A stretch of 64,000 nt of DNA from contig FN649738.1 of NCBI GenBank assembly GCA_000310025.1, forward strand, positions 1,126,350 through 1,190,349, given 5' to 3'. Position numbers and translations under genes: made by a program. How positions within the stretch are numbered: the stretch's first letter is position 1; every line of letters begins with the position of its first letter. Below the pieces are notes generated by a model. The model did not search any database. It saw only the letters and a list, made by a program, of their open reading frames with translations, and was not told the origin of the DNA. The stretch comes from Ectocarpus siliculosus (taxonomy: Eukaryota; Sar; Phaeophyceae; Ectocarpales; Ectocarpaceae). Positions 26,465 to 53,412 of this stretch are shown piece by piece.

Positions 26465-29400
26465 GCCGGGGGCACCGCGTTGGTGGGAGGCCTCCTTCTC
26501 GCTCGCTCGATCCACAACAGCCGCGCGAGGAAGAAGGTGCTGCAGATACCGTCGGCGCGGCGATCCGACCATACCGACGAGTACTTCGGCCACGTCGTGC
26601 GGGATCCCTACCGATGGTTGGAACGTGAGGGTGATGACTTGACTTGACCCGCCCCCGCCCCCCGGTAGGATAGGGGGAAAACGTTCTTGAGCCACCTTTA
26701 ATAAATGTAGGAAGGCATCGGTGATCGGTCCTGTGGGAGCACTGGTCCGTCCTCTCGAGGACGCGTGGTAATATGGTCAAACTACCAAGGAACGTAAGCA
26801 TGCGAGTACGCCCATCCCCGGATGTCTTGTGGACGACCGGCCAGGCCTCGCCCCGCATAGCGTTTCGCAGCGTCGTGATGTCGAACGGTACCAGCAGTGC
26901 TGCCCGGGAGTGTTCGGGGCCAACCGATGGGAGCCGACTTGTTTTTGCCGCCGCTTCTGCTCCAAGTTGTTTGGGGCTGGGGGAGGGGCTAGCGTCCGGG
27001 CTGTAGTTGTCTGGTTTGGTGGTTTGTGTGAGGGAAAGGATTAACGTAACGTTTGTCGTCCTGCGTCCCGCTTGTCGTCGTCTCCTTTGCTACGTTGAAC
27101 TTTTCCACTCGCTTGAACACTTTCGTATGAGTGCGTGGTGGTGGTGTGGCCGTTCCTAATTCGTCCCTCCATTTACGTTCTGAAAGCAGCATGCCGTTGC
27201 CGCTGCTCCAAAAGGTGGTGTTTTTTCTCCGTTTGTCGTCGCTGCTATTTCAGACGGACATTTGGTCTGCGTTGATGTATGAGACCCAATCTGTCTGCAG
27301 TGTAACCCCAACCATGTGTTGCGGTTTTTTATTTTCCGCCATTCGCGTTCGACGGTTTGTGATGATCATCTGTTGGCGTGTGCCTGATTTTTTCTCCCGT
27401 TGCGGCAGAGGAAGACAGCATGGAGACCAAAGCGTGGGTGGAAGAACAAACCAAGGTAAACCCACGGCACAGAGCTGCATGCAACGGTACATGTAGCACC
27501 ACCGTACCACATCGCATACCGTACCGCACCGTTTTTCGTGCCGTACCTCACCGTATATTGTCGCCGGATTTCGGCACCATCAAGAATCGGTCCCGGCGGA
27601 TTCAGGGTGGTGTAGAGAGATGGGAGGCATGCTTGGGTGGAAGGGGGACACTACCAAGGGAGCTTGTGCGCAGGTCTCGAATTGGAGCGTCGTACCGCTG
27701 GCACAAAATACCCCATCCTTTTACAGTCGGATGGATGGGTTTTTGTCCAATGCCGTGCTTCCCACGGCAGCACAAAGTGAGATTTGTTTCGTCGAGGCAG
27801 CAAGGTTTTCGCAAGGTCTCGACTAAATGTACGCCGGCACGCTTCCCTTCTATTAGTTGTGGCTGCTCCACGTCATGCCTTCCGCTGTATTTTCCACTTC
27901 TCTTGCTCTCGGTGGTACTGGATGGCGATGACATGATGCCACGTGCACTCGCAGCACACGGATGCGTACCTCCAAACGGAACTAGAACCGGGTCGAGGAA
28001 AGTTCCTGTCCAGGCTCGAAGAGGTAAGTTCACGGACGAGCGGCAGCGGCAGCAGCAGCACAGAGTTAAGCAGGCCCCCTCGATGTCAATCTAGACCTCG
28101 TTATCTCTCTCTCTCTCTCCCTCCCTCCCTCTCTTTCTCTCTGTCTCTCTGTCTCTCTCCACCACTATTCCTGCAATACTGAAACCGCCTCCATATCGAC
28201 AACCAACAACAACGAACAGCTGGTGCGATCCATGAGCTACTGTAGCTTACCTCTCTTTCCCTGCGTCCCTCGATTGTTCGATGCGTTAATACCGCCTTCC
28301 ATTATCGTCTGTATTTGTCAGGTTTTCAACTACGACAAGCACAGCTCCCCCTGGAGGGTGGGCGAGTACTGGTTCTCCTACCTGCAGAAGGGCCTCAGCC
28401 CTCAGGCGGTCATGTACAAGCAGGTGCGGGCTGTGCTGAATAGCCATTTCCTGTTTGTTTGTCGTCGTTTGTTGGTGCTGCCGTGGTAGCTGTTGCTGGC
28501 GGTGGTGTCGCTTCAAAGTGGCTGTGTCTCGACTCAATGGTTGTGTGTACAACTTCCGTGTTACAACAGTATTTTTTCTAAATAGGTGTTTGTTTTGCGC
28601 CTTTTCGTGTCCACGTCTATTTCTTATTCTGTTTGGGGGTTTGGGTGTCGGTCTATTGTTTCTGCCCTTGCCTACGGGATAGATGGGTTCCATTGGCCAG
28701 AAGACGGAGAGACGGCACCTATCATCGCGTTGAAGACACCCCAACCACAACACCTCATCACGTCATTTTTTGTTTTTGAAAACAAAATTCGGGCTGCCCA
28801 TTGCGTAAATTCAGAAGACAACGAAACCACAGTAACTCATTCTGACTTTTTTTTTTTTCGGTCAGCAAAGTTTGGGCTAGATGGCACACCTTTCAGTGCG
28901 TAAACTTAGAAGACAGCAACCGCAATAATACCTCTTCATGTTTTTTCTTTTTCTACATCAAAGCCTGGGGTGGATGGCACACGTTTCTCAGCGGGTAAAT
29001 TTAGGAGACAACTGCTAAGTCACCGCAACTCATATTTTCTTTTTCTGCAACAAAGGTTGGGCTGGATGGCACGCCGGAGGTGCTTCTGGACCCGAACACG
29101 CTTAGCAAGGACGGCACTAGCGCTCTGTCGGGGGTGGACTTCTCAAAGGACGGGGACAAGTTGGCCTACGGCATCAGCGAGAAGGGTTCTGATTGGTGGG
29201 TTCAAACGCCGAGGCCGCTCGCTGATTGGCTGGCCGGCGGTCGTGACTCTTGTGATTGCAGCGGTAGCGGTTGCTTTTGCGGCATGTTTTGGCTATGAAG
29301 CTGCTGTGCAACCAAGCGTTCGTGTGTCCTGGTGGGGCTGGTGGCGTGGTTCCGTGATTCGGTACGGTTTTTTCTTGCGAGGAAAAGACGAAAGCACGGG

Positions 29401-32400
29401 TGCCACGGTAGCCGAGGACGGCAAAACAACAAGCGTTCACCCACGAACGCCTTTGTCTTTTTTCCATCCATGCGTTGGGCGGTCTTCTTTCTCGTAAATG
29501 TTTTTTTTGTAATTTTTTCGTGTTTCAGGTCGGAAAGTTTTTCTTTCAGACATGTGTTTGGACGTGTTCTGTTTCCGTGAAGATACAGGTGGCCCGATAT
29601 ACAGTGGCAACTTGATCAGTGGAACTGCCGACATGGTGACATCAAAATCTCTTGTCACAATCTCAACATGTATGATACATGAACCCGATATGTCGAATAG
29701 TGGCACTGCCCTGAGTAGTTACATATTCTCCTCTTGCCCCTACATGCGAATATATTGGGCCACCTGTATATATTTTTCGTTTTTACTTGGCCGGCAAAAC
29801 AACTGGCGTTTACCCGCGGACGATGTTGTCTTTTTGCCATCCATTTGTTTGGCGGTGTTCTTTCTCGTGAATGTTTTTTTCGTGTTTCTTTCGTGTGTTT
29901 TTTTCGTCGGAAGGTTTTCCGTTCACGTGAAGGACGTGGTTACCGGCAAGGACCTCCCCGACGTGGTGGATTGGTGCAAGTTCGGAGGTATCACGTGGGA
30001 GGAGGGGGCAAGGGGCTTCTTCTACTCGGCGTTTCCCCGACCCAAGTCATTGGAGGTGCGTGGTGGAAAGGATCGGGGGTGCCCCCTGCATCCCTTGCCC
30101 TCGTTGGTGCGACGATTTATCACGCGTGATCCCGGGGTCAAGCAGTCGCTTCGCCTGTGAAAGGCAGCGACAACACCCGGGCTCTCGATATCTATGTACG
30201 CCGTTTGGACGGTTTTTGCCTGGGAAAGCTCTGCTGATGTGTACTCGCGTACGCCTTTCCTGCTTAAGCGTTTTGTGACCGAGTTTTGTGTCACTGCAGT
30301 GTGATTATTGTCGGGGCGACTGGCTGTAAAAGGTGGCGTCGTGACCACCGTGTACCTCGAGTTCAAAGAAACAACTCTGTTCTGTTCGGAAATATAAGGG
30401 CGATTCAGATATAATTTGATGTCCCAATGGTAAATATATCTCCGAACAGAGGTGGCATAACGGTTGAATGGTTGAATTGCCACATTCCCCGGCCTTTCCA
30501 TTGTGCCGGAAAGGCGCAGTCAACCTCACACGTCTCGCGTCTCCCCCCCCCCCTACATTCTCCCCGCTTTTCTGTGTGTTCCTCTTCGAAGGCCGCCGGC
30601 AAGAGCGCCGGCACCGAGGTAGAGGTCGCCACCGGGCACCGCATCATGTACCACAAGCTAGGAACCAAGAGCTCAGAAGACCAGGTACAATTAGGGGGGC
30701 AATTGTATTGGCAGGGGGGCAACGACACACAACCCAGGGTTGCACAGCCGCCGCCCATCGCCACTGCCGTATACCTTTGTTGCACCCTTTCCGTTGCCGG
30801 CGCATGGATGGGTGTGCACAGCTACCAGAGGACGCCTTGTCAACTGAATTTACTTTTCTACTTTTTTGGTATTTTTTAGCAAAGTCTTGATGAACTGTTA
30901 CGATTGTTGCGTGTGTGTGTGTGTTTTTTTTTTGTATCGTTTGGTCACTTTTTTTCTCGCTTGTTTTGCATTACCTGTTGGCTCGGTGTGTTACGTTCAG
31001 CCACCATTTGATCTTTTCAGCTTACCGACCGCCGAGAGAAGTTTTACTTTTTCCCACCTATAGTGTGAGTACGTCCCGTCCCACCAATGGACGGTGTCAA
31101 ATGAGCATGTCCCACCTCTAGGCCGTGGGGTTCCGTGAATCACCTTGAAGGCACCCATGGCTGATGTACGGCAAACAACATCGTTTGCATTCTTCTTGCG
31201 TCTTGGCATTTCCCACCAACATGTGGGGTTGATCTTCAACTTGCGGAGGTAATCCTCGAAACGGGTCCCGTCTCCACTCTCCCTCCGCTTGACAACCTTC
31301 CATATCATTGATTGATTGATCGACGGATTGGTGACTCTATCCTGCAAGTTATGCTGGTAAATGTCTTCATGGTCTGCGTTCTTCACTATTTTTCTTCGGT
31401 TTCTAGGAGACACGTTGGGGAGTGAGACACACGGAACGCCGGTCATCTCGCCAGCCACATTTTTTTTTTTTTTTGTGCGTGTGTGTGTTTTTTGTGTTGG
31501 CAGCTGGTGTACCAGTCTCCCCTGGACGAGAAGTGGCTCGCCTCCAGCATCATGTCCGACGACTGGAAGACCCTAATCATCAGCATCGGAGACAGCTGCG
31601 ACCCGGTCAACAGGTAGGGAGGGGAAGGCGGCGGCCCTCGTAGGTTGTTGCTGTTCAAGTGAACACGTTGGATGCAGCACGCTATCGGGGAAGTTGTTGT
31701 GTTGTTGTTGCTTTTTTTTTTTTTTGTCTTCACTTCAAATCAGCGCTCACAGCACTAGTGCCGTTTACTCCAACCCGTGGTCACACAGAAGAGCCCCTCT
31801 GTAACCTCCCCTCCTGCGGTACTTTGCCTTCGATTTTTAATGCGTTAGGGTTTGGAATAGCGTCTGTGTGCCCCCTCCACGTTCTATTTCCTCGTAAACT
31901 AATATTTCTTGCGAAGGGGGCCCCGGGAGGGGCGCCGGGCTAACTAGTAGAAGTGTAGTGCTTCCGTACGCGTTCACGCACGAGGGAGTAAACGCATTCA
32001 TGAGTGAGTGAGTACGGGTCATAGTTGAGGATGCGCGGAGAGGGCATTTCCCGATGGTATTAAGTAGTGCGAGATGGAGTAATATGAAGATGAGCGGGAA
32101 GTGCAAATTGTCCGATGGTGCTATTAGTAGGACATGAATGCCGCCGTTCTATAACCCAACCCTACCGTTACTTTCGAACGTGTAAATTGTTGGTCTGTGG
32201 CCACGGAAGGCGTCCACGACCGGTGCCGATGGTAGAAGGTACCGAGCGGAGACCGGAACGATTTTTTAACAGCGTCAAGACAACACTAACAACAACGCAG
32301 CAGCAGCAGCAGCAGCAACAACAACAGCTACAACAGCTACAACAACAACCCTTGAAGCTAGCTTCGTACGGAGCCCGAAACGTACCTAACAAACAGCTCC

Positions 32401-35400
32401 TCGTCGCTGGTCTCCCGTTGTTTTGTTCCGGTGCGTCGCACACACGGGGAAGGCTCTTCTACCGCGACCTGTCTGCGTTCGACGGGCATGACGTGGGCAC
32501 CATGGGCAAGGTAGTGAAACTGGTGGACAACTTCGACTCCCTCTACGACTATGTCACCAACGAGGGGAGGACCTTCTGGTTCAGGAGCAACATGGACGCT
32601 CCCAAGTACAAGGTGGGTCAATGCAGCCAGCCAGCCAGGGGGAGAGATGTAATACTCATGTTTCGCATGCCTTGGTTCTTAGACCGTTGACCACGTGCCA
32701 TCGAGAGGCGCACGCGGGGGGGGTGCTCATAGCCGTGGACGCCGTAGTCGTTAGGCCGTTGACCTCGCATCACTACATTGCCGGGGCGGAGCGGTTTTGG
32801 CCGGCCCAGGCTACTTTTCACAAGGGTGAGCCAGAAGCTGTTAGTGTCATCATCCTTGCGTTTGCTGTGCCCAAACAAGCGGGGGGGAGCGTACTCATGT
32901 TTTGCTTGTCTTCGTTGTTACACCGTTGACCCCGAGCCATCGAGAGGCGGGGGGGGGGGGGGGGGGGGGGGAAATCCCCCCGGGGTTTGACCCTTTGGGG
33001 GACGGGAAAAGGGCCCTCCAGCCCTTTTTTTTGGCCCCTTTTTTCCGGGCCCGATTTTTTTTTTTGGGCCAAAAATTTTTTTCCCCCCGGGGGAAATTTT
33101 TTTTCCCGGGGCCTTTTTTTTTTTTTTTTTTTGGGGCCCCCGTTTTTTCCCCCCCGGGAATTTTTTTTTTTGGCCCCTCCCTTTTTTTTTGGNNNNNNNN
33201 NNNNNNNNNNNNNNNNNNNNNNNNNNNNNNNNNNNNNNNNNNNNNNNNNNNNNNNNNNNNNNNNNNNNNNNNNNNNNNNNNNNNNNNNNNNNTGCCCTCG
33301 CCCCCCTCCTTGCCGGGGGGGGGGGGGTTTTGGCCGCCCCGGGCTCCTTTTACAAAGGGGGGCCCGGAGGCGGTTGGGGTACCCCCCCTGGGGTTGGGGG
33401 GCCCCAACAAGGGGGGGGGGGGGGTACCCATTTTTGGTTTTTTTTGGTGGTCCCCCCGTGGCCCCCCACCCATAAAGGGGGGGGGGGGGGGGGGGGGGGG
33501 GGAGATGCACCCCGGGGTTGACGCTTAGGGGTACGGCAAGAGTGCCAATCGAGCCTTTTTTCTGGCCCGTTTGTTCCGGTCCGTAGTTTATTTTTTGGTC
33601 TGAAAGTTTTGTTCGCCCGTGCGGTATATTTTGTACCTGGGTCTTCTGTTGTTCTTTTGTTGTTGGTCCGCCGTTTTGTTCGTCCGTGGCATTTTTTTTT
33701 TCTGCCTCTTCCTTTTTCGTTGCTGTTCGTCCATCCGTGTCACGGCCTCTCGTGTGTGTCTGTGTGTCTGTGTGTGTGTGTTTTTTTTTTTTTTTTTCGT
33801 TGTTCTCGTTGTTGGTCCGTCCTATCGCCCGTCCGTTTGTCTAGATGTCATGCGATCGCCTCGATCGACTGTTTCATGTTCATGTGCACACCACAGGTGA
33901 TATCGATGCAGCTGCCGCCTGCCGGGAGCCCGATGGAGGAGGACGAGGCTGCTCTCGCACAGATCCCCAAGGTCAGAGGCTGTCACCGTCTCAATGTAAC
34001 TGGAGGGGGGGGGGGTCGTACTCGTGTTTTGCATACCTCAGCGGTTAGACCGTTGCCCTCGTGTCCTCCAGAGGACGGAGCATTGTTCCCACAGGACCTA
34101 TCACCGATGGCCAATCGTCCCTTCCTACTCTGCCAAAGGTGGCTCAACAATGTTTCCCCTAGCCTGTTAAGCGGGCGGGGAGGGTCTCCTCTACGTGCTT
34201 GGTATCGTCGCGGGGACGGTTTTCGCCCCGATAATGTACACCACCGGTTACCTCTCATGGGAGGTCTGTTTCCAGGACTACGTCCGCTTTGTTCCCATTC
34301 CGTGTATCCGTCCATCGTCACGCCGTTTCCGGCCTTCCGATCTACTAATATACCTGAGTATCTGTCTAATCGACTCCTTCACTTCTCCGTAGTAGCGTGT
34401 GTCGTCACATCCTTTCCGACTTCCCACCTACACCTATCTGTCTAATCGACTCCTTCTCTTCTCCGTAGTAGCGTTCGTCTTCACATCGTTGCCTGCCTCC
34501 CCTGCTGTACCCTCTTTTCGACGCCCTTTCTTCTCCTTCCTTATTGTTGTCGTTAAGACCACCGTGGTGCCGGAGGACGCGAGCGGGGTTCTCAAGGACG
34601 CCGCGGTCGTGGCGGGAGACTTGGTCGTGCTCACCTTCGAGAGGGATGCTTTCATCCAACTCGAGCTCTTCGGGCTCACCACCCTGGAGAAGAAGGCGGT
34701 GCCCGTCCCCGGCATCGGGACCATCGGAGGCGTTTCCTCGGACAAAAAATACGTGAGTAGTGTTTTTGTTGTTTTTTGTCTTGTTTTTTTTCTTCCCTGT
34801 AATGGGTAAAGTATGTGAGCTTTGTTTGTTTCTTGTGTTCCTTTTCTTTGTTGCGATGGATCCCTTTCTGCGGTTTACAGACCATCGGAGGCGTTTTCTC
34901 AGACAGAAAATACGTGAGTAGCTTTTTGTTATTTTTATTTATTTTTTGCTTCCCTGGGATGTAGAGCATATGTGATTTTTGTTTGTTTCTCGTGGCCCTT
35001 TTTTTTTGTCGCGATGGGTCCCTTTCTCCGGTGTACGGATCATCGGAGGTGTTTCCACGGACAGCAATTCTGCTGTAGGTGCTTCTTTTTTGTGTCGGGT
35101 CCCGTTTTTTGTGCTTGCATCCCTTTGATAATAATGCACATCACATGTGTGTTGAAGGCGGCCTTCTGCTTGCAATCGGCGTTCTGTCCCACTCGCCCTC
35201 TTTTGGACACCACCACCAAAGCGCACCGGACAAGTACGTGTGCGTGTTAATGCAGGGAAACGTCATTTGTTGTTGGCTGATTTGGCACAAGGCATCACAT
35301 CGTATTGGGGAGAAATGTTAGGTGTGTTTACTGCTGTTTATGTTCTTTGTTCAAGTTGTTATTTTGCGGAAGAAAACTGTCTGTGTGAGGAAATGTCAGG

Positions 35401-38400
35401 CGGGAGTTTATCGTCGACCACGAAAGTGGCAGCAATACAGAAGAGCAGAGGTGAAGCGTCGGCGGTGTAGTGGTATTTGCAACGAACGCTCTTCCTCCAC
35501 CTAGCGAGGGATGATAGTTGAGGTTGAATGGTAGACTGGCCTAACAGAAGGTGCATCGTAGCGCACAGGACGTTGTCGAGGCTTTGGTGAGGCACTAGCC
35601 TCCAGCGAGAAGCGACAATACAGCAGTACCAAAACAAAACAAAACAAAAAAAACTTTGAAAAATGCGCGCAGCTGCCATGTGCAAAAACGTTGTTTTCGA
35701 AACAAGCGCACGGGAGCACTGAGTTTTTGTAAACGACCCCGCCCCCTTCATCCGCGCTCGCTTGACCCTCGTGCAGGACCACATAATGTTCAAGTTCACG
35801 AACTTTGTCACACCGGGCACGATCTACCACGGGACTGTCAGCAAGGGGGAGGGGGGCGGCGGCACCGCGGACGTGTCTCTGAAGGTGTACCGCGAGACCA
35901 AGGTGCCGGGTATCACGTCCACCGACTTCGAAACGAAGCAGGTTCGTCGCTGGCGTGTCGTTGTTGGTGGTTTGTTCGTCGTCGCTGTCGTTATCAGTAG
36001 CTGTTGTGAGATTAGGTTTTCTTGGGTGTATGGTTGATGTTGGCGTCTTCGTCTTTTCCGTTAGTATATGGAGGTATGTAGTAGAAGTTATTGTTACTGT
36101 CGTTGGGAATCACATGATCTTGCAACACTTTACCCTGATTCTAGGCCTTGTTTTGTTTTGTTCTCAAGTATTACCGCGTTCTTCATCACGACTTTCGATG
36201 TGATATCGTTTTTTTTATATATTGGAGATTGTTCGTCACTTCGGGACAAGTATTGCGGCGCAAGATGCATGGGTGATTCAAAAGCAAGGGCGGCACGTGA
36301 TGCCCAAGCTCGTCATTCAAGGGCGTCGCCGTGGTGCCCGTGTTTGCCAGGGTAATTTTATTGTTCGTCACAACTATTGCGACGAAATAATCGAACAAAT
36401 CAGGTTCGATGTAAGACCCATCTTTATGGGGAGCAAATCTTCCTTTGGGCAAATCTTGCCTTTTTCGACCTTTTGGGCGGCCTGCGTCGCGAACGAATGC
36501 AAATCACCTGTTCGACCCTCGAGAAAAGTCACAGCTAGCTTTGGTTGAGATGTCTACAGGTCACCTATCTGCCACGTTTGATTTTTTTCCCGCAGAGCAA
36601 GATTTGCAAATTCGTCCAAGATTGGGCCGAATAGCCAACTCCGAGCAAATCTTGGGTCAAGATTTGCCAAGATTTGAAAAAATGCTGGTTTTGGAAGGAT
36701 CTTGCGTGAAAATTGCACATTTTGAAAAAATCAAACGGGGACCCTTGCGAAACAAATAGACATTCTGTAGACATCTCAGCCAAAGCTATGACTCTTCTCG
36801 AAGGTGGAACAGCTGATTCGCATTCGTTCGGGAAGCAGACTGCCCAAAAGGCCGAAAAGACAAGATTTGCCCAAAACAAGATTTTGTTCCCATAAATCGG
36901 GATCTAAGAGCAAGGACAACACCGTGGTGCCCGTGGTCGTCATCTTGATATCGGAGTAGTACTATTCATCACTTCGGGACAACTCTTGCGGCGTAATAAT
37001 CGAAAAAGCAGGTTCGATACAAGAGCAAGGACGGCACCGTGGTGCCCATGTTCGTCGTGGGGCGCAGGGGGGCCGAGGGTGCTTCGCCGTGCCTGCTCTA
37101 CGGGTACGGCGGCTTCAACATCTCGCTCAACCCCAGCTTCTCTGCGGCGAGGCTGCTCTTCATCAAGCACTACGGGGCAAGGTTTTGCTTGGCGAACATC
37201 CGGTGCGTGGCTGGGGTATGTGTGATGGGTACGCGCCGTCTTTTTGAAGTCGGTCGGTCGTTTCGTGAACAAGTATGTCCGTCAAGCCATCTCTCTTTTC
37301 GGTGGTTACTGGTAACCTTTTGCGGAGGCCTCCCTGGTCCACAAAATTTTTGTCGTATTTACATGGTCGTTACGATGGTCACACCTCGTTCTGTCTGTCT
37401 CTTTCCTTGTCTCCCTGTATGTCTCTCTGCTTGTCTCTCTGTGTGTCTGTCTCTCTGTCTCTCTGTCTCTCTGTCTCTCGATCTCTCTCTCCCTCCCTGT
37501 CTCTCTCTTTCTCCGTCTGTCCGTCCCTCTCTACCTCTACCTACCTACCTATGTACCTGTCTGTCTGTCTGTCAGGGGTGGGGGCGAGTACGGCGAGGAG
37601 TGGCACTCTGGCGGAACACTCAACCAAAAGCAGAACGTGTTCGACGATTTCATGTACGCCGCCAAGTACCTTCCAGCCAAAGGGTACACCACCAAGGACC
37701 AGCTGGCCATCATGGGGGGCTCCAACGGAGGACTGGTGGGTACTGTACTGTTTTTTTTTTGTTGGGGGGGGGGTAGTCGACAAGTTTTCATCATCCGGGG
37801 GGGGTGAAAGGCGTCAATTGTGTGTGTATGGGTGGGGGTTCGAACCAAGGGCTGGTGCATGTTTGCATCGAGTGTTGGAGAGAGAGGGGGGAGCGTTTCA
37901 GATGCCCGATTCGGGGAAGCTGGTTTTGATCCTGTTTTACACTTGCCCGATCTTGACGCTCGCCCTGTTGTTCGCCCCCTCTATTTGTTCGTTTTTTTGC
38001 CTTGCGTTCGCGTGGCGTCTCAAACCGTCGCCGTCCTGCTGTTGCTGTATGTTTTTCGTCCTCTCAAGCTGGTGGGGGCGTGCGTGAACCAACACCCGGA
38101 GTTGTTCGGCGCAGCAGTCGCCCAGGTGAGTTTTTTTTTTATCTCCCCGTATGATCTTGTTGTGGTAATTTGGTATGAGCTGGCTGTGTGTATGTGACCA
38201 CGATGGATTGAATTGACTTTTTTTATACAACCATACCATGCCAGGCGCCAGGCACAAACAAGATCTCCACGTCACTGGACGATTTTTTTTTTTTTTGCAT
38301 GCGAGAGGCTGCTTGTTTTCTTGAGGGCAGGTTTCGTCGCTTTTGAATGTACCTCCTGTGTGTTGTGTGTTTTCGCGCAGTGGATGCCTTCAGAGCGAGT

Positions 38401-41316
38401 CCCTGCCTGTGTCTGACCCCCCTTTGGCTGCTGAAGAACCGATTGACGCACCACCCATCACGCGATTGGCTCAACGTGGCACGCTGGATGCCAGTTGCGT
38501 CGCCGTCGTTGTCGGTGTTTGCTGCTGCTATTTCTTGATGTTGCCTACTTTCCGTTGATGTTGTCGCGGCCGTTATAGTTGGTGGTAGTGATGGTGGAGG
38601 AGGTGCGATGTTACGATGTGATGCCTTCATCGCACGGCGAACGGCTCGATCCATGGGTCCTTCTGATGTGGTCGTAACGGCTTCTTGTGCGGGTCCCATC
38701 CGGCAGGTGGTACCGGGACAGAATGCTTGCTTTCTTCGGTGGGTCACATGCTACAACTACTGCACCGCAATAAAATACCTCACGAAAATCGACACATCCG
38801 TTGAAAGATCCGTTGATTCTTCCAAAACCGCCAAGTCCGCCGCTGCATCCACCATTTTTAGCGTCGTGCCATGCAGACGTTGTGCCTGGTAGGCAGCCAA
38901 GCGTCGCTCTGGATTTGTTTCGCACTACTACTGTTGTAGAAAGATTACAAGGGTTTCTTTGAAAATGATGACGTTAGGTGGGCGTGATGGACATGCTGCG
39001 TTTCGACGAGTTCACGATCGGCTACGCGTGGCGAAGCGACTTCGGCAGCTCCAAGGCAACCGAGGAACAGTTCAAGACGCTTCGGGCATACTCGCCGGTG
39101 AGATGCATGTACAGGTGTACAGTAGATGCCACTGTTGGTGTTGGTGTTGGTTGTATATGTCCGTTTGTAGTGATACGCATGTCTCCTGAGGAGGGTCCAA
39201 TTCCAATTCTTTCACCGTTATTTTCTGAACAACAAAAAAAAGTAATTTGTTCTTGTCGAACTTGTGACTTTGGGGGAAGACAAGCAGTACTGACGTAGTC
39301 GCTTGGTTCGGTATCATACGAACAACTGCTGACGGGAGCAATGCTTGCGTCAGACAGCTACCTCCTCGGGTACTTGACGAAACACGTGCAACGTTCTCGA
39401 ACCCTTTTTATCTTGACAAAGCAACAACAGCATAGTTCTAGTATTATAGCGCTTTGTAGTCCTGCCTTGTTTGACAGTTTCTTGCTCTTTCGCCCTGCCC
39501 TTCCCCCCCCATCCCCGACTCCCCGCTGCCTATTTGGGACGTTGGCATATGGCAGGTGCACAACGTGGACCCGAAATCACCGCCCTACCCGGCAGTTCTG
39601 TTAACTACAGGTCAGTACACGCACTATAATAGCACGGCAGGCAGCGTTGACGTTCTCTCGTGTGCTTCACGCCAGCGCTAACGACAACTTCAATTTTTGC
39701 GTGATAATTTCAGTGTTTTTCTTCTCAAGAGGCGGTTCACTGCAAATGACAAACTCTCGTGTTTTCTCGTTTTCTCGGTAGCAATATTCGCAAAATCAGT
39801 ATCCTACCTGATTCACGGTCAACAGGCAGTAAACTGCAATGTATGGGTCTTGTTTGGACCCAATAATGTAGGTATACCATGGCGAATATTCATTCTCAGG
39901 TCGTGTTCCTTCTTGTCAAGAAATATATAGACTTACGACACCGGGGCGTTGAGATTTGTTTTTCGTTCCAGTTTTTTTCGACGAGGCGTTTTGTCTTCGT
40001 TCAGACCACGCACACGCCTGCTCGGGGTTTCGTTGCTGAAGCCAGGCCACACTTGCGCGAAACGGTTCAGATATGGATGGAGTCTACCTTGGGGCTGTTG
40101 TTGTTGTTGTTGTTGTTGTTGTTGTCTCAACATCAAAAAGGAACGGAGATAACCCTGCATCACAATCGCGCCGACAGAAGATGTTTGCAGTTCATGCATG
40201 ATCCCACCAAGGGAAGAAACATTCCGTTTAGGACGGCTTTCGTCGGACTGCTTACTACCCAGACGAAGATCCTGCGACAATCGACGCCGCGCAGGGACAG
40301 CGTCAGGGCCAGGGCATTCCGAGATACGGGCACGACGATGACATCGCATGCCTGCTGCACAACCAAACCACCATTATTCAGTACAGCCCAGCACCTGGGT
40401 CGGCAATTTAGCGTTGCTTGTTCTTTGGGGCATGAGACCAACGTGGCAGGAGAGTGCATGTCCCTGATGAGAGACCAACACGTTTTCGGCACCTCGTATC
40501 TACCTCCTTGCTGCACAACCACAATGCACTGCACCTGAGTCTCGCAACCCGCTGCAAAACTACCGCGTGTTTTTGTCTGGTGCAGGAGACCACGACGACA
40601 GGGTGTGCCCGTTGCACAGCTACAAGTACATCGCGGAGCTGCAGCACACGATCGGCTCTAGGCCCGGGGAGAAGAAGCCCCTCCTGATCCGGATAGACAG
40701 AGACAGCGGCCACGGCGGGGGCAAGCCGACCGCAAAGGTACACGGGCCGACGACATCATCTTCCAATACCGGAGTCTTATTTTTCGCTATTGCAAACAGT
40801 TGGCTGTTTCTCTGTTCGAGAATGTTGGCCCCTTCTTGTTGTCCATAATCTCATGCACCTCACACCTCTGCCGCGTCTGTCCCTCGCACCCTTGGTGCCA
40901 TGCCCGACCCCAGGGTCTGCTGCGCCATTCCGGAATTGTTAAAAGCAAGCCGACAATATCGTCGGCGTTGCTAGTCCCAAGCTGGCCTTTTTTTTGCTCA
41001 TTGCTCATTGTTTCAGGGTTGAGAACGGAAGCAGGGACGGACTCCTTATGTACGCATGCTTCAGGCAGTGGCATTGTGATAATCTTGTTTTGGTCTCACC
41101 GTCACCTTTTTCGTTTGTGCCTGTCCCTACCCCTTTCTCGTTTGTGCCTGTCCCTACCCCTTTTTCGTTTGTGCCTGTCCCTACCCGCCCCCGTCTGCGC
41201 GCGGTGCACTCATGCACGTTATTTTTATTTGCGCGATACATGCGCAGGTGCTGGCGGAGGCTGCGGACACGTACGCGTTCATCGCCAAGCACACGGGGGC
41301 ATCATGGACACCGTGA
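26465..41316 (+). CDS. Prolyl oligopeptidase (S9A serine peptidase), 19 exons
   Basis: Exons: 26465-26624, 27409-27455, 27955-28023, 28322-28423, 29056-29195, 29914-30055, 30592-30684, 31504-31613, 32453-32612, 33897-33971, 34558-34752, 35777-35941, 37012-37202, 37576-37735, 38069-38125, 38978-39097, 39556-39610, 40586-40737, 41248-41316. Every phase matches, giving 753 residues and a TGA stop; only the exon with the start codon is missing. The enzyme cleaves short peptides after proline. Visible signatures: DPYRWLE and [11 protein letters not shown] near the N-terminus, beta-propeller segments such as VALSG-type [11 protein letters not shown] and [14 protein letters not shown], the fold core [12 protein letters not shown], the nucleophile in GGSNGGL (Ser about 599), DHDDRV (Asp about 685) and SGHGGGK (His about 723). 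The Ser-Asp and Asp-His spacings of 86 and 38 fit the family. The visible N-terminus has a short hydrophobic stretch ALVGGLLLA that may belong to a targeting or anchor segment. Acceptors AAG and AG variants and donors GTTCGT and GTCAGA are unusual but phase-supported. Confidence 0.95.
26718..26818 (-). repeat. tRNA-like dispersed repeat copy in oligopeptidase intron 1
   Basis: The plus strand reads GGTCCTGTGGGAGCACTGG, the inverted repeat GTCCTCTCGAGGAC, GCGTGGTAATATGGTC and CATGCGAGTACGCCC, the reverse complement of the family consensus. Confidence 0.7.
28785..29080 (+). repeat. About 92-bp tandem copies of an acceptor and exon start
   Basis: Upstream of exon 29056-29195, units starting near 28785, 28871 and 28964 repeat the exon's start (GTTGGGCTGGATGGCAC) as TTTGGGCTAGATGGCAC and CCTGGGGTGGATGGCAC, each preceded by a T-rich tract and CAAAG, like the real acceptor. 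Spacings are about 86, 93 and 92 bp. Confidence 0.8.
29418..29930 (+). repeat. Duplicated acceptor region of oligopeptidase exon 6
   Basis: The 140 bp before exon 29914 (GGCAAAACAACTGGCGTT, CCATCCATTTGTTTGGCGG, GTCGGAAGGTTTTCC) has a diverged copy at 29418-29560 (GGCAAAACAACAAGCGTT, CCATCCATGCGTTGGGCGG, GTCGGAAAGTTTTTC). The copies are about 373 bp apart. Confidence 0.75.
30997..31458 (-). CDS. Antisense nested ORF of 153 codons, unknown
   Basis: Within the intron between oligopeptidase exons 7 and 8 an uninterrupted minus-strand frame starts at 31458. It has balanced protein-like composition, with [34 protein letters not shown] and [18 protein letters not shown]. It is neither repetitive nor a shadow of an exon. 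It could be a nested gene or a fragment of a transposable-element protein; no domain was recognised and there is no splice evidence. Confidence 0.35.
   Translation of the reverse strand: MAGEMTGVPCVSLPNVSPRNRRKIVKNADHEDIYQHNLQDRVTNPSINQSMIWKVVKRRESGDGTRFEDYLRKLKINPTCWWEMPRRKKNANDVVCRTSAMGAFKVIHGTPRPRGGTCSFDTVHWWDGTYSHYRWEKVKLLSAVGKLKRSNGG
32230..32352 (+). repeat. Diverged (CAA)n/(CAG)n-tailed element
   Basis: GGTACCGAGCGGAGACCGG, then AACGATTTTTTAACAGCGTC and AAGACAACACTAACAACAAC run into CAG and CAA triplets. It is an eroded relative of the elements at 6.7 and 52.5 kb. Confidence 0.5.
32640..32960 (+). repeat. Three adjacent tRNA-like repeat copies in an oligopeptidase intron
   Basis: Heads occur at 32650 (ATACTCATGTTTCGCATGCC), 32723 (GTGCTCATAGCCGTGGACGCC) and 32889 (CGTACTCATGTTTTGCTTG). 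The middle copy has GACCTCGCATCACTAC, GGGCGGAGCGG and GGCCGGCCCAGGCTAC. Each head is preceded by a G run, and the last ends in a long G run where the assembly breaks down. Confidence 0.7.
32961..33502. other. Assembly artefact around a 100-N gap
   Basis: The right flank, 33293-33502, is a corrupted copy of about 32762-32960, and the left flank, 32961-33192, is a corrupted copy of about 33503-33740; matches include TTTGACCCTTTGGGGGACGG against GTTGACGCTTAGGGGTACGG. Runs of identical bases are inflated throughout. The real sequence probably joins 32960 directly to 33503 across a poly-G tract. No gene should be called here. Confidence 0.85.
34005..34115 (+). repeat. tRNA-like dispersed repeat, best A-box copy
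   Basis: After a run of ten G the copy reads CGTACTCGTGTTTTGC and TACCTCAGCGGTTAGACCG, where TACCTCAGCGG fits the Pol III A-box pattern, then GTCCTCCAGAGGACGGAGC and TTGTTCCCACAGGACC. It lies in the intron after oligopeptidase exon 10. Confidence 0.7.
34719..35075 (+). repeat. About 160-bp tandem copies of an exon end and donor
   Basis: The last 33 nt of oligopeptidase exon 34558-34752 with its GTGAGT donor recur at 34880 and, diverged, at 35038 (spacings 161 and 158 bp). The second copy is flanked by TTTACAG and GTGAGT and stays in frame, encoding [11 protein letters not shown] beside the original [11 protein letters not shown]. Confidence 0.85.
36228..37050 (+). repeat. Copies of the acceptor and start of oligopeptidase exon 13
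   Basis: The exon start GTTCGATACAAGAGCAAGG with its upstream ATCACTTCGGGACAACTCTT occurs as diverged upstream copies near 36228-36350 and 36363-36960. The middle copy is interrupted by the MITE at 36415-36904. Confidence 0.75.
36415..36904. mobile_element. PIF/Harbinger-like MITE, 490 bp, TAA target duplication
   Basis: The ends are imperfect inverted repeats of more than 130 bp: left GACCCATCTTTATGGGGAGC, right end reversed GATCCCGATTTATGGGAACA, continuing through GGGCAAATCTTG and GAGATGTCTACAG. TAA flanks both sides (36412-36414 and 36905-36907). Removing the element and one TAA restores GTTCGATG-TAA-GAGCAAGG, which aligns with the neighbouring exon start GTTCGATACAAGAGCAAGG. A 3-bp TAA/TTA duplication is the hallmark of PIF/Harbinger elements. 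No transposase is encoded, so the element is non-autonomous. Confidence 0.8.
37385..37575 (+). repeat. Long CT/CTGT pyrimidine tract before the active-site exon
   Basis: About 190 nt of CTGTCTCTCTGT-type repeats end directly at the CAG acceptor of the exon that carries the catalytic serine. It serves as an extended polypyrimidine tract and may be length-variable. Confidence 0.7.
40090..40150 (-). repeat. Truncated (CAA)n-tailed element
   Basis: Ten TTG units (plus strand) are followed by TCTCAACATCAAAAAGGAACG, a diverged version of the element's GTTTTTAATGTGAAGAC end in inverse orientation. The run gives a false poly-Leu ORF on the plus strand. Confidence 0.5.
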
Positions 41317-48330: not shown

Positions 48331-48507
48331 CGTCCCCCCAGACAGGGGGGACTGGGTTCGCCGCTGCTAGGGGCGGCTGTCCGCTGTGTACGGGCTTCGA
48401 CGCGAGTGTTGGTGCCTGGAAGAGCCGGTCCGAGGTCTGGCCGTTCGGCACAGAGTCGACAGCGCCTCCGCCCCTAGCATCGCAGTCCCCCCGGTGTGGG
48501 GGGACGT
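48331..48507. repeat. Fold-back element with a hairpin inside each arm
   Basis: Arms 48331-48381 and 48458-48507 are inverted repeats (left CGTCCCCCCAGACAGGGGGG, right end reversed CGTCCCCCCACACCGGGGGG, both followed by ACTG and GCTAGGGGCGG). Each arm also contains its own CCCCCC-N5-GGGGGG hairpin, so the whole can form a cruciform. Confidence 0.75.
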
Positions 48508-48927
48508 CGAGGAGAAAGCACACGTTTTCGGGGTTGGAACATACAAGTATTCGAAGGCGTCGGTAGATATTTGGATTTCGCACTGCTGTTCCGAAGAGTG
48601 TAAACAAACTGTACCATGTAGGGTCACCTTCCTAAATACTACCCGTACTTCGTATTGCGTCCCCAAACGTGAAAAATAAGAATAATGTACCCAAAACATA
48701 AACAAGCAACACCACAAACCCAATACCAAAATCTTTTTGTCCCAAAGCTACAATAATGTATACCGTTCGACGATTGGATGTTTGGACCCCAGAACATACG
48801 CACACGAAAAGGGGCCAACACGTGTTTCCCATGATCACTGGCTGTCTTTACCTTTTACCCCTCGGACCCTCCTCACGGCGAGAAAGGGTCAAGGGTTGTG
48901 CTGTGTAAAATGTACCGTAAATGACAC

Positions 48928-49113
48928 AAGATAACACACCCCCCGGACCGATTTTTTCAAATCTCGATTTCTCATCAACAGAAAGAGTCACAGCGCCGAA
49001 AACAGTGGCGTTGAAGCTGTCTAGCTTTCCGAAAATGTATTGTTTCATTTACACATCCTGTTCGTCGCGGCGTAATCGAGCTTTGAAAACTGGTCCAGGG
49101 GGTGTGTTATCTT
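48928..49113. mobile_element. Short MITE-like inverted-repeat element, 186 bp
   Basis: The left end AAGATAACACACCCCCCGGA and the reversed right end AAGATAACACACCCCCTGGA match over about 35 bp, ending near TTTTCAAA. A clear target duplication is not visible, so the superfamily is open. Confidence 0.65.
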
Positions 49114-49434
49114 AAGTCACACGCGGTAGTCACTCTTGGGAGGTTGGCGTTTGGGTTCGCTTACAGCGGATGTGGAAGTTAGTACCGTCTGTTGGTACAC
49201 AAAACTTGAGTGAAAAAGCACAACCGTCATTTTTGTAGCAAATAATGTCCGCCAGGCAAAAAGTTCTCGTTCTGGTGTTGGGAATGGAAACACCTCATGA
49301 CGAGCTTGAGCCATCGTCGCCCCCCACCACAGCAGTATATGTATAGCACTCAAGGCCCGGAGAGAAAGAAAGAACCTGATCGAGGCTCAATTTGGTACTG
49401 AATTCGGTCACCTACGTACAGCAGTGCCACATGA

Positions 49435-49680
49435 CTACATGGGGAGTTTAATGTAGCGTAGGCTCCGCGGCTGAGTTGTGTACCGTAGCCCAATTCTCTC
49501 ATTTCTCGTGAACGCGTAAGCCTTATTTTTTTCCATTAAGGCATGTTTCTCAGCTGCTTGGCGCGCTCTGCTGTACTCTTCCACGAGGGTCGAACCTAAC
49601 ACCGACCGCCCCCTCCCCTCTCCGACCCCATCCTTGTCCCCGAATACCTCCGTGTCTTGTGTGTCCCGGTCTTGTCTCCT
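49435..49680 (-). CDS. Possible C-terminal exon, unknown
   Basis: A minus-strand frame ending at 49435 reads STLVEEYSRARQAAEKHALM, then EKNKAYAFTRNERIGLRYTT and ends RSLRYIKLPM. It is amphipathic and protein-like, but no acceptor or upstream exon could be matched. Confidence 0.25.
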   Translation of the reverse strand, partial: RRQDRDTQDTEVFGDKDGVGEGRGRSVLGSTLVEEYSRARQAAEKHALMEKNKAYAFTRNERIGLRYTTQPRSLRYIKLPM

Positions 49681-50342
49681 CGGCTCGCAGGGATTTCCGC
49701 ACCAAGCCAGACCGTGCACCGACAGGTACGTCGACGTTCGGCGCGGGACAGTCAGCAGCAAGCAGCTTGGATGCACACGAGTAGCCTGCTTGCCCTCTCG
49801 CTGCTGGTGTTGTGATTGTGTTGATTCGTATCGCTTCCTGCTGCTGCGGTGCTCGTGCTGTCTGTTGCCGCGCGCTCTGTACCCATGGTGAACCCCACCT
49901 TGTCGTCCACCTCATCCCACTGTTCGCGTACATGCGTGAGCACATGCGTCGCATAAATGGACGCTGCCGTTTATTGGTAGTCTCCTTGTGGAGATTTGTT
50001 GTCAACCACGCGAAGAAGGACATGGCCCTCACGAAAAATATTTTACTGTTTCACTCTTGCGTTTTCGTTCTGGCCTTTCGGCAACATGCGTACCTTGGCT
50101 CGAAAGAAAACAGAAACGAGGAAGCGTGATGGCTGTCCCGACGCCCCTGAATGTCACGCCAAGTGCATGCGTATCTAGGCGCCCCTTCAGACCGGAATGT
50201 AGATAAGGCGTTGCTTCACAGCGTCTCATGTATATCTACCCGCGGACGATATATCACCCGGTCGCACGGAGACGGTGATGATGGGCTAGCCAGCCGCTCG
50301 CAAAGCACAGACGACGAACACGCGCACACACACCTTCCACAG

Positions 50343-52617
50343 GTGGCAAACAAGACCACATCTTCGAAAAAGGGCAAGGGGGTCGTCGGCAAAGTGAAGA
50401 AGCCAGCCGCTGCTGCCGCCGCGCCGACCCCCCCCCCCCCGCCGCCGCCGCCGCAGGTGTCGCAGACGACGGTGACCCCGCTCCCTCCCAAGAAGCCCGC
50501 CCCGCCTGCGGGGGGGGGGGGTGCTGCGCCTGCGGGCCAGCGTGCCCCCCAAGACAAAGTCGAACAACTTGCTCATCGGTACGGTGCTGGTGGGAGCGGC
50601 GGCCGCCTCGTACTAACGTGACGATACACAAGATGAAGGACCAGGTGTGTGCTGTGGTTGGTGTGTCGTGGGTCTGCGAGGAGCGTTTCGTGGACAACAC
50701 GCCGCTTTTGTCCTTGTTGAGTGTCGTTAGATGGCCCCTATCTTGGTGATGTCGTGCCTCTTTTGGGAGCGGAAGCGAAACTATCGGACCAGTCATGCTG
50801 ACGAGTCTAATGGTTTGATTTTCGACTTTTTAACCCCTTACGGACGGCCAAGGCGCCGAAGCCGGTGTGTCGGCTTGGTCGTCTTGTCTTTCGCCAGAAA
50901 TGCCTAGTTTCTTCGGCCCCAACATACCCGGCGTTGAACCTGACTTGTTTTTCCCAGCTTGCTGGTTCAGCTGCTATTCACCGCTGCCGCTGCTGCGCCC
51001 TGCCTCTGTGTCTATTTTTGTGTTGCACGCTGCACCCGAATGTGATTGCACGCTGCCGCAACGCAACAACCCCCGCCCATCACCAACGACAACGACAACT
51101 ATACCTGCAGGATTTCCTTGGCGCCGCAGAAAAGGAGGCCGAAGAGGAGGCGCAGGTGTGTTGCAGGGATGCCAAGCCCTAAATAATTTTTGTTTTTTGT
51201 GAGCGGGACGACGGACACTACATGCATGCATGAAGGCTTCCCCCCAAAAATGAAACATGCCTGTCGGAGTGGTTTGTGGAACTTCTGTTTGTTGAAGGCT
51301 GTTTGTCAGCTCTTTCGTTTTTCTTCATGCCCCCATGGTGTTTGTCCCGTGTGCAGCAGCTAAGCAGGCAGAGCATGGGACGCTCGGTACAGCACAAGTT
51401 GGATTGGACCACGACCGAGAGCGGGTCGCATGACTTGAAAACACTCAACGCGTCGTAGTGAAAAGTAGAGCAGGCGCGGGTCTGATTTTCTGAATTTCGC
51501 TTCTTGATGGTGGGACGTGTTTTGGCTAAACTTAACAAGAAAACAAAAGGCAAGGTTGCGTCTATTGTTTTAGCTTTATTCGGTTTCGGGGAGGACGTAC
51601 CATTTGGTTTCTGTTGTGGTTTGGCGCAGGGAATAATTTGAATGGTGTCCGTCAAGGTGTGTCGAGTGTCTGGCGATTGGTTGAGCAGGAATTTGCAAGC
51701 AGGCGTCGGTCTGACGCGACCGAACGTACGGGACAGAGTGACCAACACTCCACGGAGTTGACGACTCGTTTCCGGTGCATGTCATGCACGTCACGGCAAG
51801 ATCGTGGCAAGATCGTGGCAGGACGATGGCGCGTCGCCTTCTGCAGGGGTAACACGAAGTACCAAACAAGCCAGGCATACACCCGCCCACCAGCTCTCAT
51901 GTATACGGCGTCAAGTTGTGAACCGATCGAGTTCGCACCCCACGGCGCCCCCCCCCCCTCCCCCTCCCAGGTGAACCTCCACAAGAGCGGGCTTAAGGTT
52001 TCCTCCAAGGTGGTGCCGGAGAAGGTGGAGAAGGTTTTCAACAGGGCCGCGGACGCGGTAGCGAAGGCCACCGGCAAGGCCGAGGACAAGGTGCGGCGAG
52101 ATTGCTGGCAGGTGTTCGCCGCGGTGGGGACCGGGGGTGGTGGCGTGGTCTGATGTCGTAGTAGTAGCGAAGGCTCGTTCGTGAACGGGAGAATGATGGT
52201 CTTGGAATCCTCAGAGGGATTGATTTGCTTATCCCGACGGATAGGGCCATGGTTGAAACAACGCTGCGTGTGCCTGTTCCGTATTGCGTGGTTGCTTTCG
52301 GTTGATGTGTGTTGTTACTCAAATCACCACCTGATTGGTCGAGAAGTATGCACACGTACGCGACTGTCGGAGTGCGCCGTGGCTTGATCATTTTTGGTTC
52401 TCATCATATGGCAAAGGCGTTTCGGGACTTTGATGAGCGCCAACTAACGGCGGTGATATATGGGGCCACTTTATTTGATTGTACCTTTTTAGGGTAAGTT
52501 AGCCTGTGACCGCGGGAATCGACCGCGTCAAGTATTGGACCAGTACGGACATATGAAGGTACTGGGTAGAGAGAGAGATCGTAGAGAGAGAGATCGGAAC
52601 GGTTTTTAAATGTGAAG

Positions 52618-52650
<33 letters not shown>

Positions 52651-52704
52651 ACAACAACAACAGTAACAGTAACAGTAACAACAACAACAACAACAATAAT
52701 AACG

Positions 52705-52739
<35 letters not shown>

Positions 52740-53412
52740 AATAACGGCTGTGTAGTCGAAACCGCGGCCGCGCGATTGTGGTTGTTGTTGATGTCGTCGC
52801 ACAACAGCAGTTTCCGGATACACATCTAGTCGGATATGCCTGTTCACATCCAATCCAACGGAATGTGCATGTCCCAACCTCCAGTTGTTTTTGCGCGTGT
52901 CATCGTTGAAAACGAAAAGCACGTGGAAGGGGTGTCCGCAGATGTCAAGGGTGCATGTCCCAAGCTTACCCATCCTCAAGAAATATTGCGTGGTTCATTT
53001 TTTAAAATCCAGGCGGATGTGTACGCAGATCAAGGGTGTGCGTCTCAAGCTGACCCATACTCAAACGTGTTTCTTTGTCGGGAGCGAAAACCAGGTGGAC
53101 GCAGATGTCAAGGACGTACGTTCCAAGCTGACGCATCCGCCATATCCCGCGTGTTTCTTTGTGTCTCCTCCAAAATCTTGGGGCATTTCTCTTACTGTTG
53201 GAAACGCGAAAAAACAGGTGGAAGAGGTGTCGGAAGGCGTGAAAGACGCTGCTAGCGAGGTTTCGAGCAAGGCCTCGGACGCCGTGAAGGAGATCAAGGA
53301 CGAGGCAAAGAGCGCGGCGGCGGCGGTAGAGGCCGCAGTTACGGGAGAAGAAGTCCCTAAGAAGAAGGGCTGGAGGAAGTACATCATCTTCGGCCCACGC
53401 AGGGAGGGATGA
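50343..53412 (+). CDS. Ala/Lys-rich amphipathic-helix protein, unknown function
   Basis: Exons with phase-0 joins: 50343 to about 50590, 51111-51155, 51971-52090 and 53218-53412, ending TGA. Exon 1 is KKGKGVVGKVKKPAAAAAA followed by Pro runs; a poly-C and a poly-G run make its frame uncertain, and the shifted frame gives TKSNNLLIGTVLVGAAAA, a membrane-like segment. Exon 2 is DFLGAAEKEAEEEAQ. Exon 3 is SSKVVPEKVEKVFNRAADAV and KATGKAEDK. Exon 4 is VEEVSEGVKDAASEVSSKAS, DAVKEIKDEAKSAAAAVEAA, then KKKGWRKYIIFGPRREG. The 11-residue periodicity of V, K, A and E resembles LEA or apolipoprotein-like helices that lie on membranes; no family is claimed. The N-terminal exon is missing. The intron before exon 4 contains copies of that exon's start. 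Confidence 0.6.
52490..52745 (+). repeat. (CAA)n-tailed dispersed element with long tail
   Basis: From GGGTAAGTTAGCCTGTGACC, through CAGTACGGACATATGAAGG and a duplicated AGAGAGAGATCG, to GGTTTTTAAATGTGAAGAC and about 120 bp of CAA, CAG-T and AAT triplets. It lies in the last intron of the helical-protein gene. Confidence 0.8.
52908..53217 (+). repeat. Diverged copies of the acceptor and start of the last helical-protein exon
   Basis: Before the real exon (ACAG-GTGGAAGAGGTGTCGG) lie AAAACCAGGTGGACGCAGATG (53086), AAATCCAGGCGGATGTGTACG (53003) and GCACGTGGAAGGGGTGTCCG (52918), each followed by TCAAGG and a CCAAGCTGAC-type tail. Each could act as a mini-exon; the one at 53093 is followed by GTACGT. 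Confidence 0.7.

What the first reader, a model, noticed from the sequence alone, without database searches (positions are those of the whole stretch)
26465..53412. Recurrent tandem duplication of splice sites together with the adjoining exon edge
Next to oligopeptidase exons 5, 6, 11 and 13 and the last exon of the helical-protein gene, the intron contains two to four diverged tandem copies of the splice site plus 15-40 nt of exon. Unit lengths differ (about 92, 373, 160, 600, 90 bp), so these are independent events. Tandem duplication across AG/GT boundaries is a proposed route to new introns and exons; seeing five in one 27-kb region suggests an active local process of intron growth.
Basis: partly seen in the sequence, partly recalled or inferred. 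Interest (0 to 1): 0.85.

Follow-up and report, generated by a model that had tools for sequence, protein, structure and literature searches.

The report
Exon edges copied into neighbouring introns
In one alga-like gene and a neighbour, short stretches spanning an intron-exon border were duplicated in tandem five times, leaving decaying extra copies of the exon edge inside the intron; this lengthens introns but has not visibly made new exons or introns.

Summary
All five local duplications exist, each with a splice site plus roughly 12-45 nt of exon, and they exceed chance: 6 of 342 exon edges match their own intron at score 24 or more, five of them these, against 0 of 2,736 edge/foreign-intron controls. 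Two unit lengths need correcting: the 373- and 600-bp spacings contain dispersed inverted-repeat transposons; the duplicated units were nearer 190 and 120 bp. Four of the five arrays were searched in the genome and none matched outside the locus, so they are local tandem duplications, not introners. The clustering is real in my sample, 5 of 39 edges in these two genes against 1 of 351 elsewhere, but the region was picked because of it. Over the duplicated introns sampled, edges are hit about as often as random placement predicts (5 of 14, expected 4.3). No new intron or exon is evident and the exon copies show no conservation. Most likely: ordinary short tandem duplications, tolerated because one intact edge remains, then decay and transposon insertion. 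Unexplained: the local excess, and that all four acceptor cases lie at AG|GT acceptors.

The parts
28799..29075 (+). Three tandem copies (~95 bp) of 3' intron end plus ~20 nt of exon 5; the last copy carries the real acceptor (exon starts 29056)
   Evidence: only itself found in the genome
29416..29548 (+). Intronic copy of the 3' end of intron 5 plus 12-13 nt of exon 6
   Evidence: 79% identical to 29789-29925; genome search finds only itself and that partner
29586..29766 (+). Dispersed TIR element (CAGGTGGCCC...GGGCCACCTG, TA on both sides) inserted between the two copies
   Evidence: 39 other matches from 40 scored of 135 candidates, 23 of the 39 near full length; ends read
29789..29925 (+). 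Real 3' end of intron 5 and start of exon 6 (exon starts 29914)
   Evidence: PF02897 match of the exon
34359..34536 (+).
34719..34880 (+). First copy: real end of exon 11 (to 34752), donor and intron start
   Evidence: only itself found in the genome
34881..35040 (+). Second copy in the intron; 34881-34913 is a potential in-frame 33-nt mini-exon ([11 protein letters not shown]) with AG before and GTGAGT after
   Evidence: alignment and splice scores; translation
35041..35067 (+). Partial third copy (exon part only)
36232..36320 (+). First intronic copy of the exon 13 edge
   Evidence: 36232-36314 is 75% identical to 36965-37056; extended by hand-set alignment
36364..36416 (+). Second copy, 5' half, with AG|GT acceptor copy at 36404
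   Evidence: 83% to 36973-37024
36417..36900 (+). Dispersed TIR element splitting the second copy; flanks GATGTAAGA / GATCTAAGA
   Evidence: 92 match rows, many the two strands of one copy, from 40 scored of 49 candidates, best relatives 93%; flanks
36906..36941 (+). Second copy, 3' half (exon part)
   Evidence: 89% to 37021-37056
36965..37062 (+). Real 3' end of intron 12 and start of exon 13 (exon starts 37012)
52899..53160 (+). Three irregular intronic copies of the last-exon edge of the helical-protein gene
   Evidence: only itself found in the genome
53198..53262 (+). Real acceptor region and start of the last exon (exon starts 53218)

Best explanation
These are ordinary short tandem duplications (units about 76-190 bp) that happened to straddle an intron-exon border. 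Because the copy next to the exon stays intact, the mRNA can still be made correctly, so the extra copy becomes intron sequence. It then decays neutrally and can collect transposon insertions. The intron grows by one unit per event and no exon or intron is created. Shown: the tandem copies, no match outside the locus for four of five arrays, transposons inside two of them, no conservation of the exon copies, and no clear general preference for edges. Inferred: the mutational step (slippage or templated break repair) and tolerance by selection.
For: Five edge-spanning local duplications above controls (four of them also in the stricter). Genome searches with four of the five arrays: only themselves or themselves and the tandem partner. 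Similar duplications lie inside introns elsewhere: 7 of the 14 introns with duplications are outside the window. Edge spanning 5 of 14, expected 4.3. Exon-part divergence 49 of 277 (17.7%), intron-part 95 of 484 (19.6%), pairs not independent. Transposons inside two arrays. One intact exon per array in the gene model.
Against: The local excess (5 of 39 against 1 of 351) and the edge bias within these two genes (5 of 6, expected 2.1; expected 1.0 if the exon part is capped at 50 nt, P 0.0006) are not explained by uniform random placement. All four acceptor cases are AG|GT acceptors. If the copies decay neutrally while the exon is constrained, exon-part divergence should be about half of the intron part; the pooled value is about 0.9 of it, and the exon-11 array alone fits well.
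Confidence: 0.7

Rival explanations
1. Recursive-splicing tolerance: duplications survive preferentially where the acceptor reads AG|GT, because an upstream copy used by mistake regenerates a donor and is spliced again to the true acceptor, leaving the mRNA unchanged. Introns at such edges would ratchet longer.
For: 4 of 53 AG|GT acceptors carry an edge duplication against 1 of 143 others (Fisher 0.02, post hoc). Regenerated donors at the exon-exon junctions lie at the 21st, 26th and 14th percentile of donors for exons 5, 13 and the helical gene, near the median (20th) of the 60 AG|GT junctions (the helical junction depends on a predicted, unverified upstream exon).
Against: n = 4. The exon-6 junction makes a hopeless donor (0.5th percentile). 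Of eight upstream acceptor copies that I read by eye in the alignments, only two keep AG|GT (36404 and 53095).
Confidence: 0.12
2. Birth of new exons or introns by tandem genomic duplication, with the exon-11 copy as an incipient in-frame 33-nt exon.
For: 34881-34913 keeps the reading frame (33 nt), an AG acceptor at the 40th percentile and a donor scoring the same as the real one.
Against: Its 3 changes in 33 nt are what neutral decay at half the intron-part divergence (20 of 122) predicts (own arithmetic); the gene finder does not call it an exon. No other copy was seen with both sites and an open frame, though this was not searched systematically.
Confidence: 0.08
3. A true mutational hotspot for tandem duplication at this locus.
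For: Introns with duplications 6 of 20 against 8 of 210; the last oligopeptidase intron also has a 27-bp array, 41105-41186, 96%.
Against: Region chosen because of the cluster; background rate uncertain. Right flank L033 has one weak array; left flank L032 has none, but no gene was predicted there.
Confidence: 0.2
4. Sequencing or assembly artefact.
For: The assembly seems to hold such artefacts: window 32760-33717 beside a 100-N gap and L023:3165-3740 are homopolymer-rich diverged copies of adjacent sequence.
Against: The five arrays are not beside the three N gaps, differ by ordinary transitions and transversions, and two contain transposons.
Confidence: 0.03

Closest known systems
[quoted passage not shown] potato RdRp case, PMC4974935)
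   Same: [quoted passage not shown] the model also in passages of the review PMC3443670).
   Different: In potato a new intron and exon arose. Here the copies remain inside the old intron and decay. The same paper mentions an 83-bp intronic tandem duplication that did not change the structure, which is closer.
Drosophila novel intron positions from tandem duplication (PMC2891723)
   Same: Tandem duplications at AG/GY sites (abstract and passages).
   Different: Those lie in coding sequence and create introns.
Whole-exon tandem arrays in brown algal ROCO genes (PMC11378527)
   Same: Tandem duplication involving exons in brown algae (abstract and passages); my sample has arrays of 126-nt exons plus intron in L013 and L016.
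   Different: There whole symmetric exons are duplicated and expressed; here only exon edges, with no transcript evidence either way.
[D] stwintrons in Lipomyces (PMC7138796)
   Same: Suggested duplication of a donor element inside an existing intron (passages).
   Different: 4-7 nt donor duplications giving nested introns; here a 161-bp unit and no evidence of nested splicing.
Introners (PMC9860276)
   Same: Repeated sequence tied to introns.
   Different: Introners are dispersed copies; the four arrays searched have no match outside the locus. One passage of that paper and the start of its abstract were seen.

Membership tests
[quoted passage not shown]
[quoted passage not shown]
   Real acceptors AG|GT in the 4 acceptor cases, not in the donor case; two of eight upstream copies keep it (by eye)
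[quoted passage not shown]
   One intact exon per array in gene models; no transcripts available
Introners | Many near-identical copies at dispersed intron positions | tested here: not met
   for four of five arrays; the exon-13 array was not searched; the tool skips simple repeats and very common words
Whole-exon tandem duplication / exon shuffling | Entire exon in the unit | tested here: not met
   Homology stops 12-51 nt into exons of 140-195 nt
Recursive splicing sites | AG|GT in the intron used in stepwise splicing | not testable with these tools
   needs RNA reads; sequence only partly compatible
Minisatellite | Many near-identical head-to-tail units | tested here: not met
   2-4 diverged copies

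The most novel reading that the evidence does not exclude
Exon edges reading AG|GT are a ratchet for intron growth: tandem duplications across them are tolerated because misused upstream copies are corrected by recursive splicing, so such introns accumulate edge copies, and some genes (this oligopeptidase) are hotspots. A donor-side copy (34881-34913) is an incipient in-frame mini-exon.
Probability: 0.1. Interest if true: 0.75.

Novelty: new member of a known kind. Interest (0 to 1): 0.38.

Why it matters
If general, fossil exon edges inside introns record how often border-spanning duplications occur without making a new intron. That denominator is needed to judge tandem duplication as a source of introns and exons. 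The AG|GT association would give a simple reason why some such duplications are harmless, and it can be tested directly in any annotated intron-rich genome.

Tried and rejected
Dispersed introner-like origin: rejected for the four arrays searched. Artefact: rejected for the five; thought likely for window 32760-33717 and L023:2446-3740. Conserved alternative exons: no support. General edge preference: no support over the 14 duplicated introns (5 against 4.3; 4 if the helical case, whose BLAST array does not itself reach the exon, is not counted); with the exon part capped at 50 nt the expectation is 1.8 (P 0.024), so the answer depends on the null. Weak outside hits: L024 scores 29, but a local alignment lies inside the exon and does not include the splice site, so even the one outside hit is doubtful; L027 scores 23; L028 scores 20, 25, and below 18 after the models were re-run. 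A first look for a 9-nt repeat directly beside 36898 found none; the flanks match when the element end is set at 36900. Related species: the search tool states that this genome has no relatives there, so the orthologous-intron test was not run. Literature: the listings shown by searches (capped lists, titles and abstract starts; one returned none) named no paper on edge copies in introns of brown algae; the library is open-access only and other words were not tried. Organism name: not established. GC 53%, 189 Mb, 87 light-harvesting matches and long introns fit a brown alga (table in passages of PMC6418280); an inference.

Full report
What was checked. The window lies in a 189.5-Mb genome of 492 contigs at C13:1126350-1190349. 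It holds a prolyl-oligopeptidase-type gene at 26465-41316 on the + strand, 18 exons set by hand and a nineteenth (33897-33971) only predicted. Of 7 oligopeptidase exons given to Pfam, 4 match PF02897 and 2 match PF00326 (exons 11 and 12 below the curated cut-off); exon 13 alone has no match. The last exon of the helical-protein gene has only sub-threshold apolipoprotein-like matches. A small gene finder was trained on these same exons and on kinase exons; it returned 14 of my 18 hand-set exons exactly and moved four by 1-3 bases, to boundaries I accept because my settings there lacked a GT or AG or included the stop codon. That is not an independent test. All other gene models are its predictions, without transcripts.

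The observation. Self-BLAST and pairwise alignments show all five duplications. Four involve the 3' splice site and the start of the next exon; one (exon 11) involves the exon end and the donor. Copies per array: 3, 2, 2 full plus 1 partial, 3, and about 4. In alignments found by search, the shared exon part is about 20, 12, 34, 45 and 14 nt; hand-set alignments reach 51 nt for exon 13 and 45 nt for the helical gene. For the helical gene the BLAST array stays in the intron, and the edge link rests and on hand-set alignments.

Control against chance. For each predicted intron of at least 160 nt (178 of 217 usable) I aligned the exon edge (40 nt of exon, 60 nt of intron) to the rest of its own intron and to pieces of introns from other loci. 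Score 24 or more spanning the junction: 6 of 342 edges against 0 of 2,736 controls, control maximum 22. A stricter junction-anchored score keeps exon 5, exon 11, exon 13 and, exactly at the threshold, the helical gene, plus L028 at 25: 5 of 342 against 0 of 2,052; it loses exon 6. In that call intron-interior anchors scored 24 or more in 10 of 444, a rate no lower than that of the edges; at 32 or more, 8 of 140 in the window and 1 of 304 outside.

Two unit lengths are wrong. Between the exon-6 copies lies a 181-bp element, CAGGTGGCCC...GGGCCACCTG with TA on both sides; a genome search gives 39 further matches from the 40 candidates scored (135 in all), 23 of the 39 near full length. Inside the second exon-13 copy lies a ~484-bp inverted-repeat element with relatives at 93% identity and below, flanked by GATGTAAGA and GATCTAAGA. 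Subtracting these lengths leaves units of about 190 and 115-124 bp. The exon-13 element sits in one of three copies only, so it came after the duplication that made that copy; the array copies differ at 11-28% of aligned sites, the element from its nearest relatives at 7%.

Origin of the units. Genome searches with four of the arrays found nothing outside the locus; the exon-13 array was not searched, and the tool skips simple repeats and very common words. Dispersed, introner-like origin is therefore not supported for those four.

Is the locus special? With 30 regions (338 kb) the edge test gives oligopeptidase 4 of 34 edges, helical gene 1 of 5, rest of window 0 of 38, outside 1 of 313; Fisher 4e-5, or 4e-4 without the helical case. 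Introns with any local duplication: 14 of 230, 0 of 230 after one shuffle each; 6 of 20 in the two genes and 8 of 210 elsewhere, Fisher 4e-4. The region was chosen because of the cluster, so these P values are too small. The background rate, 1 of 351, has a 95% interval of 0.007-1.6%; taking about 7,000 gene-equivalents (from roughly 17,000 genes, close to the Ectocarpus figure in the table seen), 0.02 such genes would be expected at the point estimate and 14 at the upper bound. Both chance and a hotspot remain open.

Are edges preferred? For each of the 14 duplicated introns I computed the chance that a randomly placed array spans an edge by at least 12 nt: expected 4.3, observed 5 (4 if the helical case is not counted). 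In the two genes: expected 2.1, observed 5 of 6 (P 0.018). Elsewhere: expected 2.2, observed 0 of 8 (P 0.058). If the exon part is capped at 50 nt the expectation falls to 1.8 of 14 (P 0.024), and to 1.0 in the two genes (P 0.0006). The unit lengths for the arrays with inserts are my estimates, and L021 was counted once although it has three arrays. Long whole-exon arrays (L013, L014, L016), the artefact-like L023 and exon-exon repeats were not in this count.

Do the copies do anything? Pooled over ten comparisons, which are not independent, exon parts differ at 49 of 277 sites and intron parts at 95 of 484. Copies kept as exons should be clearly more alike; they are not. Neutral decay against a constrained exon would predict about half the intron-part divergence; the pooled value is higher, which I cannot fully explain (hand-set alignments of the most diverged copies may contribute). 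The best candidate for function is the second exon-11 copy, 34881-34913: 33 nt, in frame, [11 protein letters not shown] beside the real [11 protein letters not shown], donor score equal to the real one, acceptor at the 40th percentile. Its 3 changes in 33 are what half of the intron-part divergence (20 of 122) predicts, so neutrality is sufficient.

A lead. All four duplicated acceptors in the two genes read AG|GT, a class that makes up 53 of 196 tested acceptors; duplications lie at 4 of 53 of these and 1 of 143 others (Fisher 0.02, post hoc). An upstream copy of such an acceptor, if used, recreates a donor that can splice on to the true one. Three of the four junctions give donors of moderate strength (14th-26th percentile), the exon-6 junction does not, and by eye only two of eight upstream copies still read AG|GT. 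I treat this as a hypothesis.

Conclusion. The duplications are real, apparently independent and locally enriched. The anatomy matches known border-spanning tandem duplications such as the potato RdRp case (PMC4974935, abstract and passages), but the outcome here is a longer intron with decaying exon edges, not a new intron or exon. Mechanism of duplication (slippage or break repair) is inferred from established knowledge and was not tested.

Noticed in passing
window 32760-33717: Apparent 533-bp duplication flanking a 100-N gap (33193-33292); in the two stretches measured on either side 88% and 68% of bases lie in homopolymer runs of 3 or more (window mean 20%), so this is probably low-quality sequence beside the gap.
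   Followed up: partly
L023:2446-3740: A 72% 'duplication' whose second copy is homopolymer-rich (43% of bases, locus mean 19%) next to a poly-G run; probably the same kind of assembly artefact.
   Followed up: partly
L013:6431-8740 and L016:81-3243: Tandem arrays of whole 126-nt exons with their introns (offsets ~330 and ~480), reminiscent of the repeat-exon genes described in brown algae.
   Followed up: no
window 36417-36900: Inverted-repeat transposon with apparent 9-nt target duplication (Mutator-like by that feature, recalled), many relatives in the genome.
   Followed up: partly
window 9378-11152: Repeat of ~300-540-bp units at 93-99% identity, also found inverted at 55711-56285, ending at a 100-N gap; looks like a young repeat family.
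   Followed up: no
window 41105-41186: 27-bp x3 array (96%) inside the last oligopeptidase intron.
   Followed up: no
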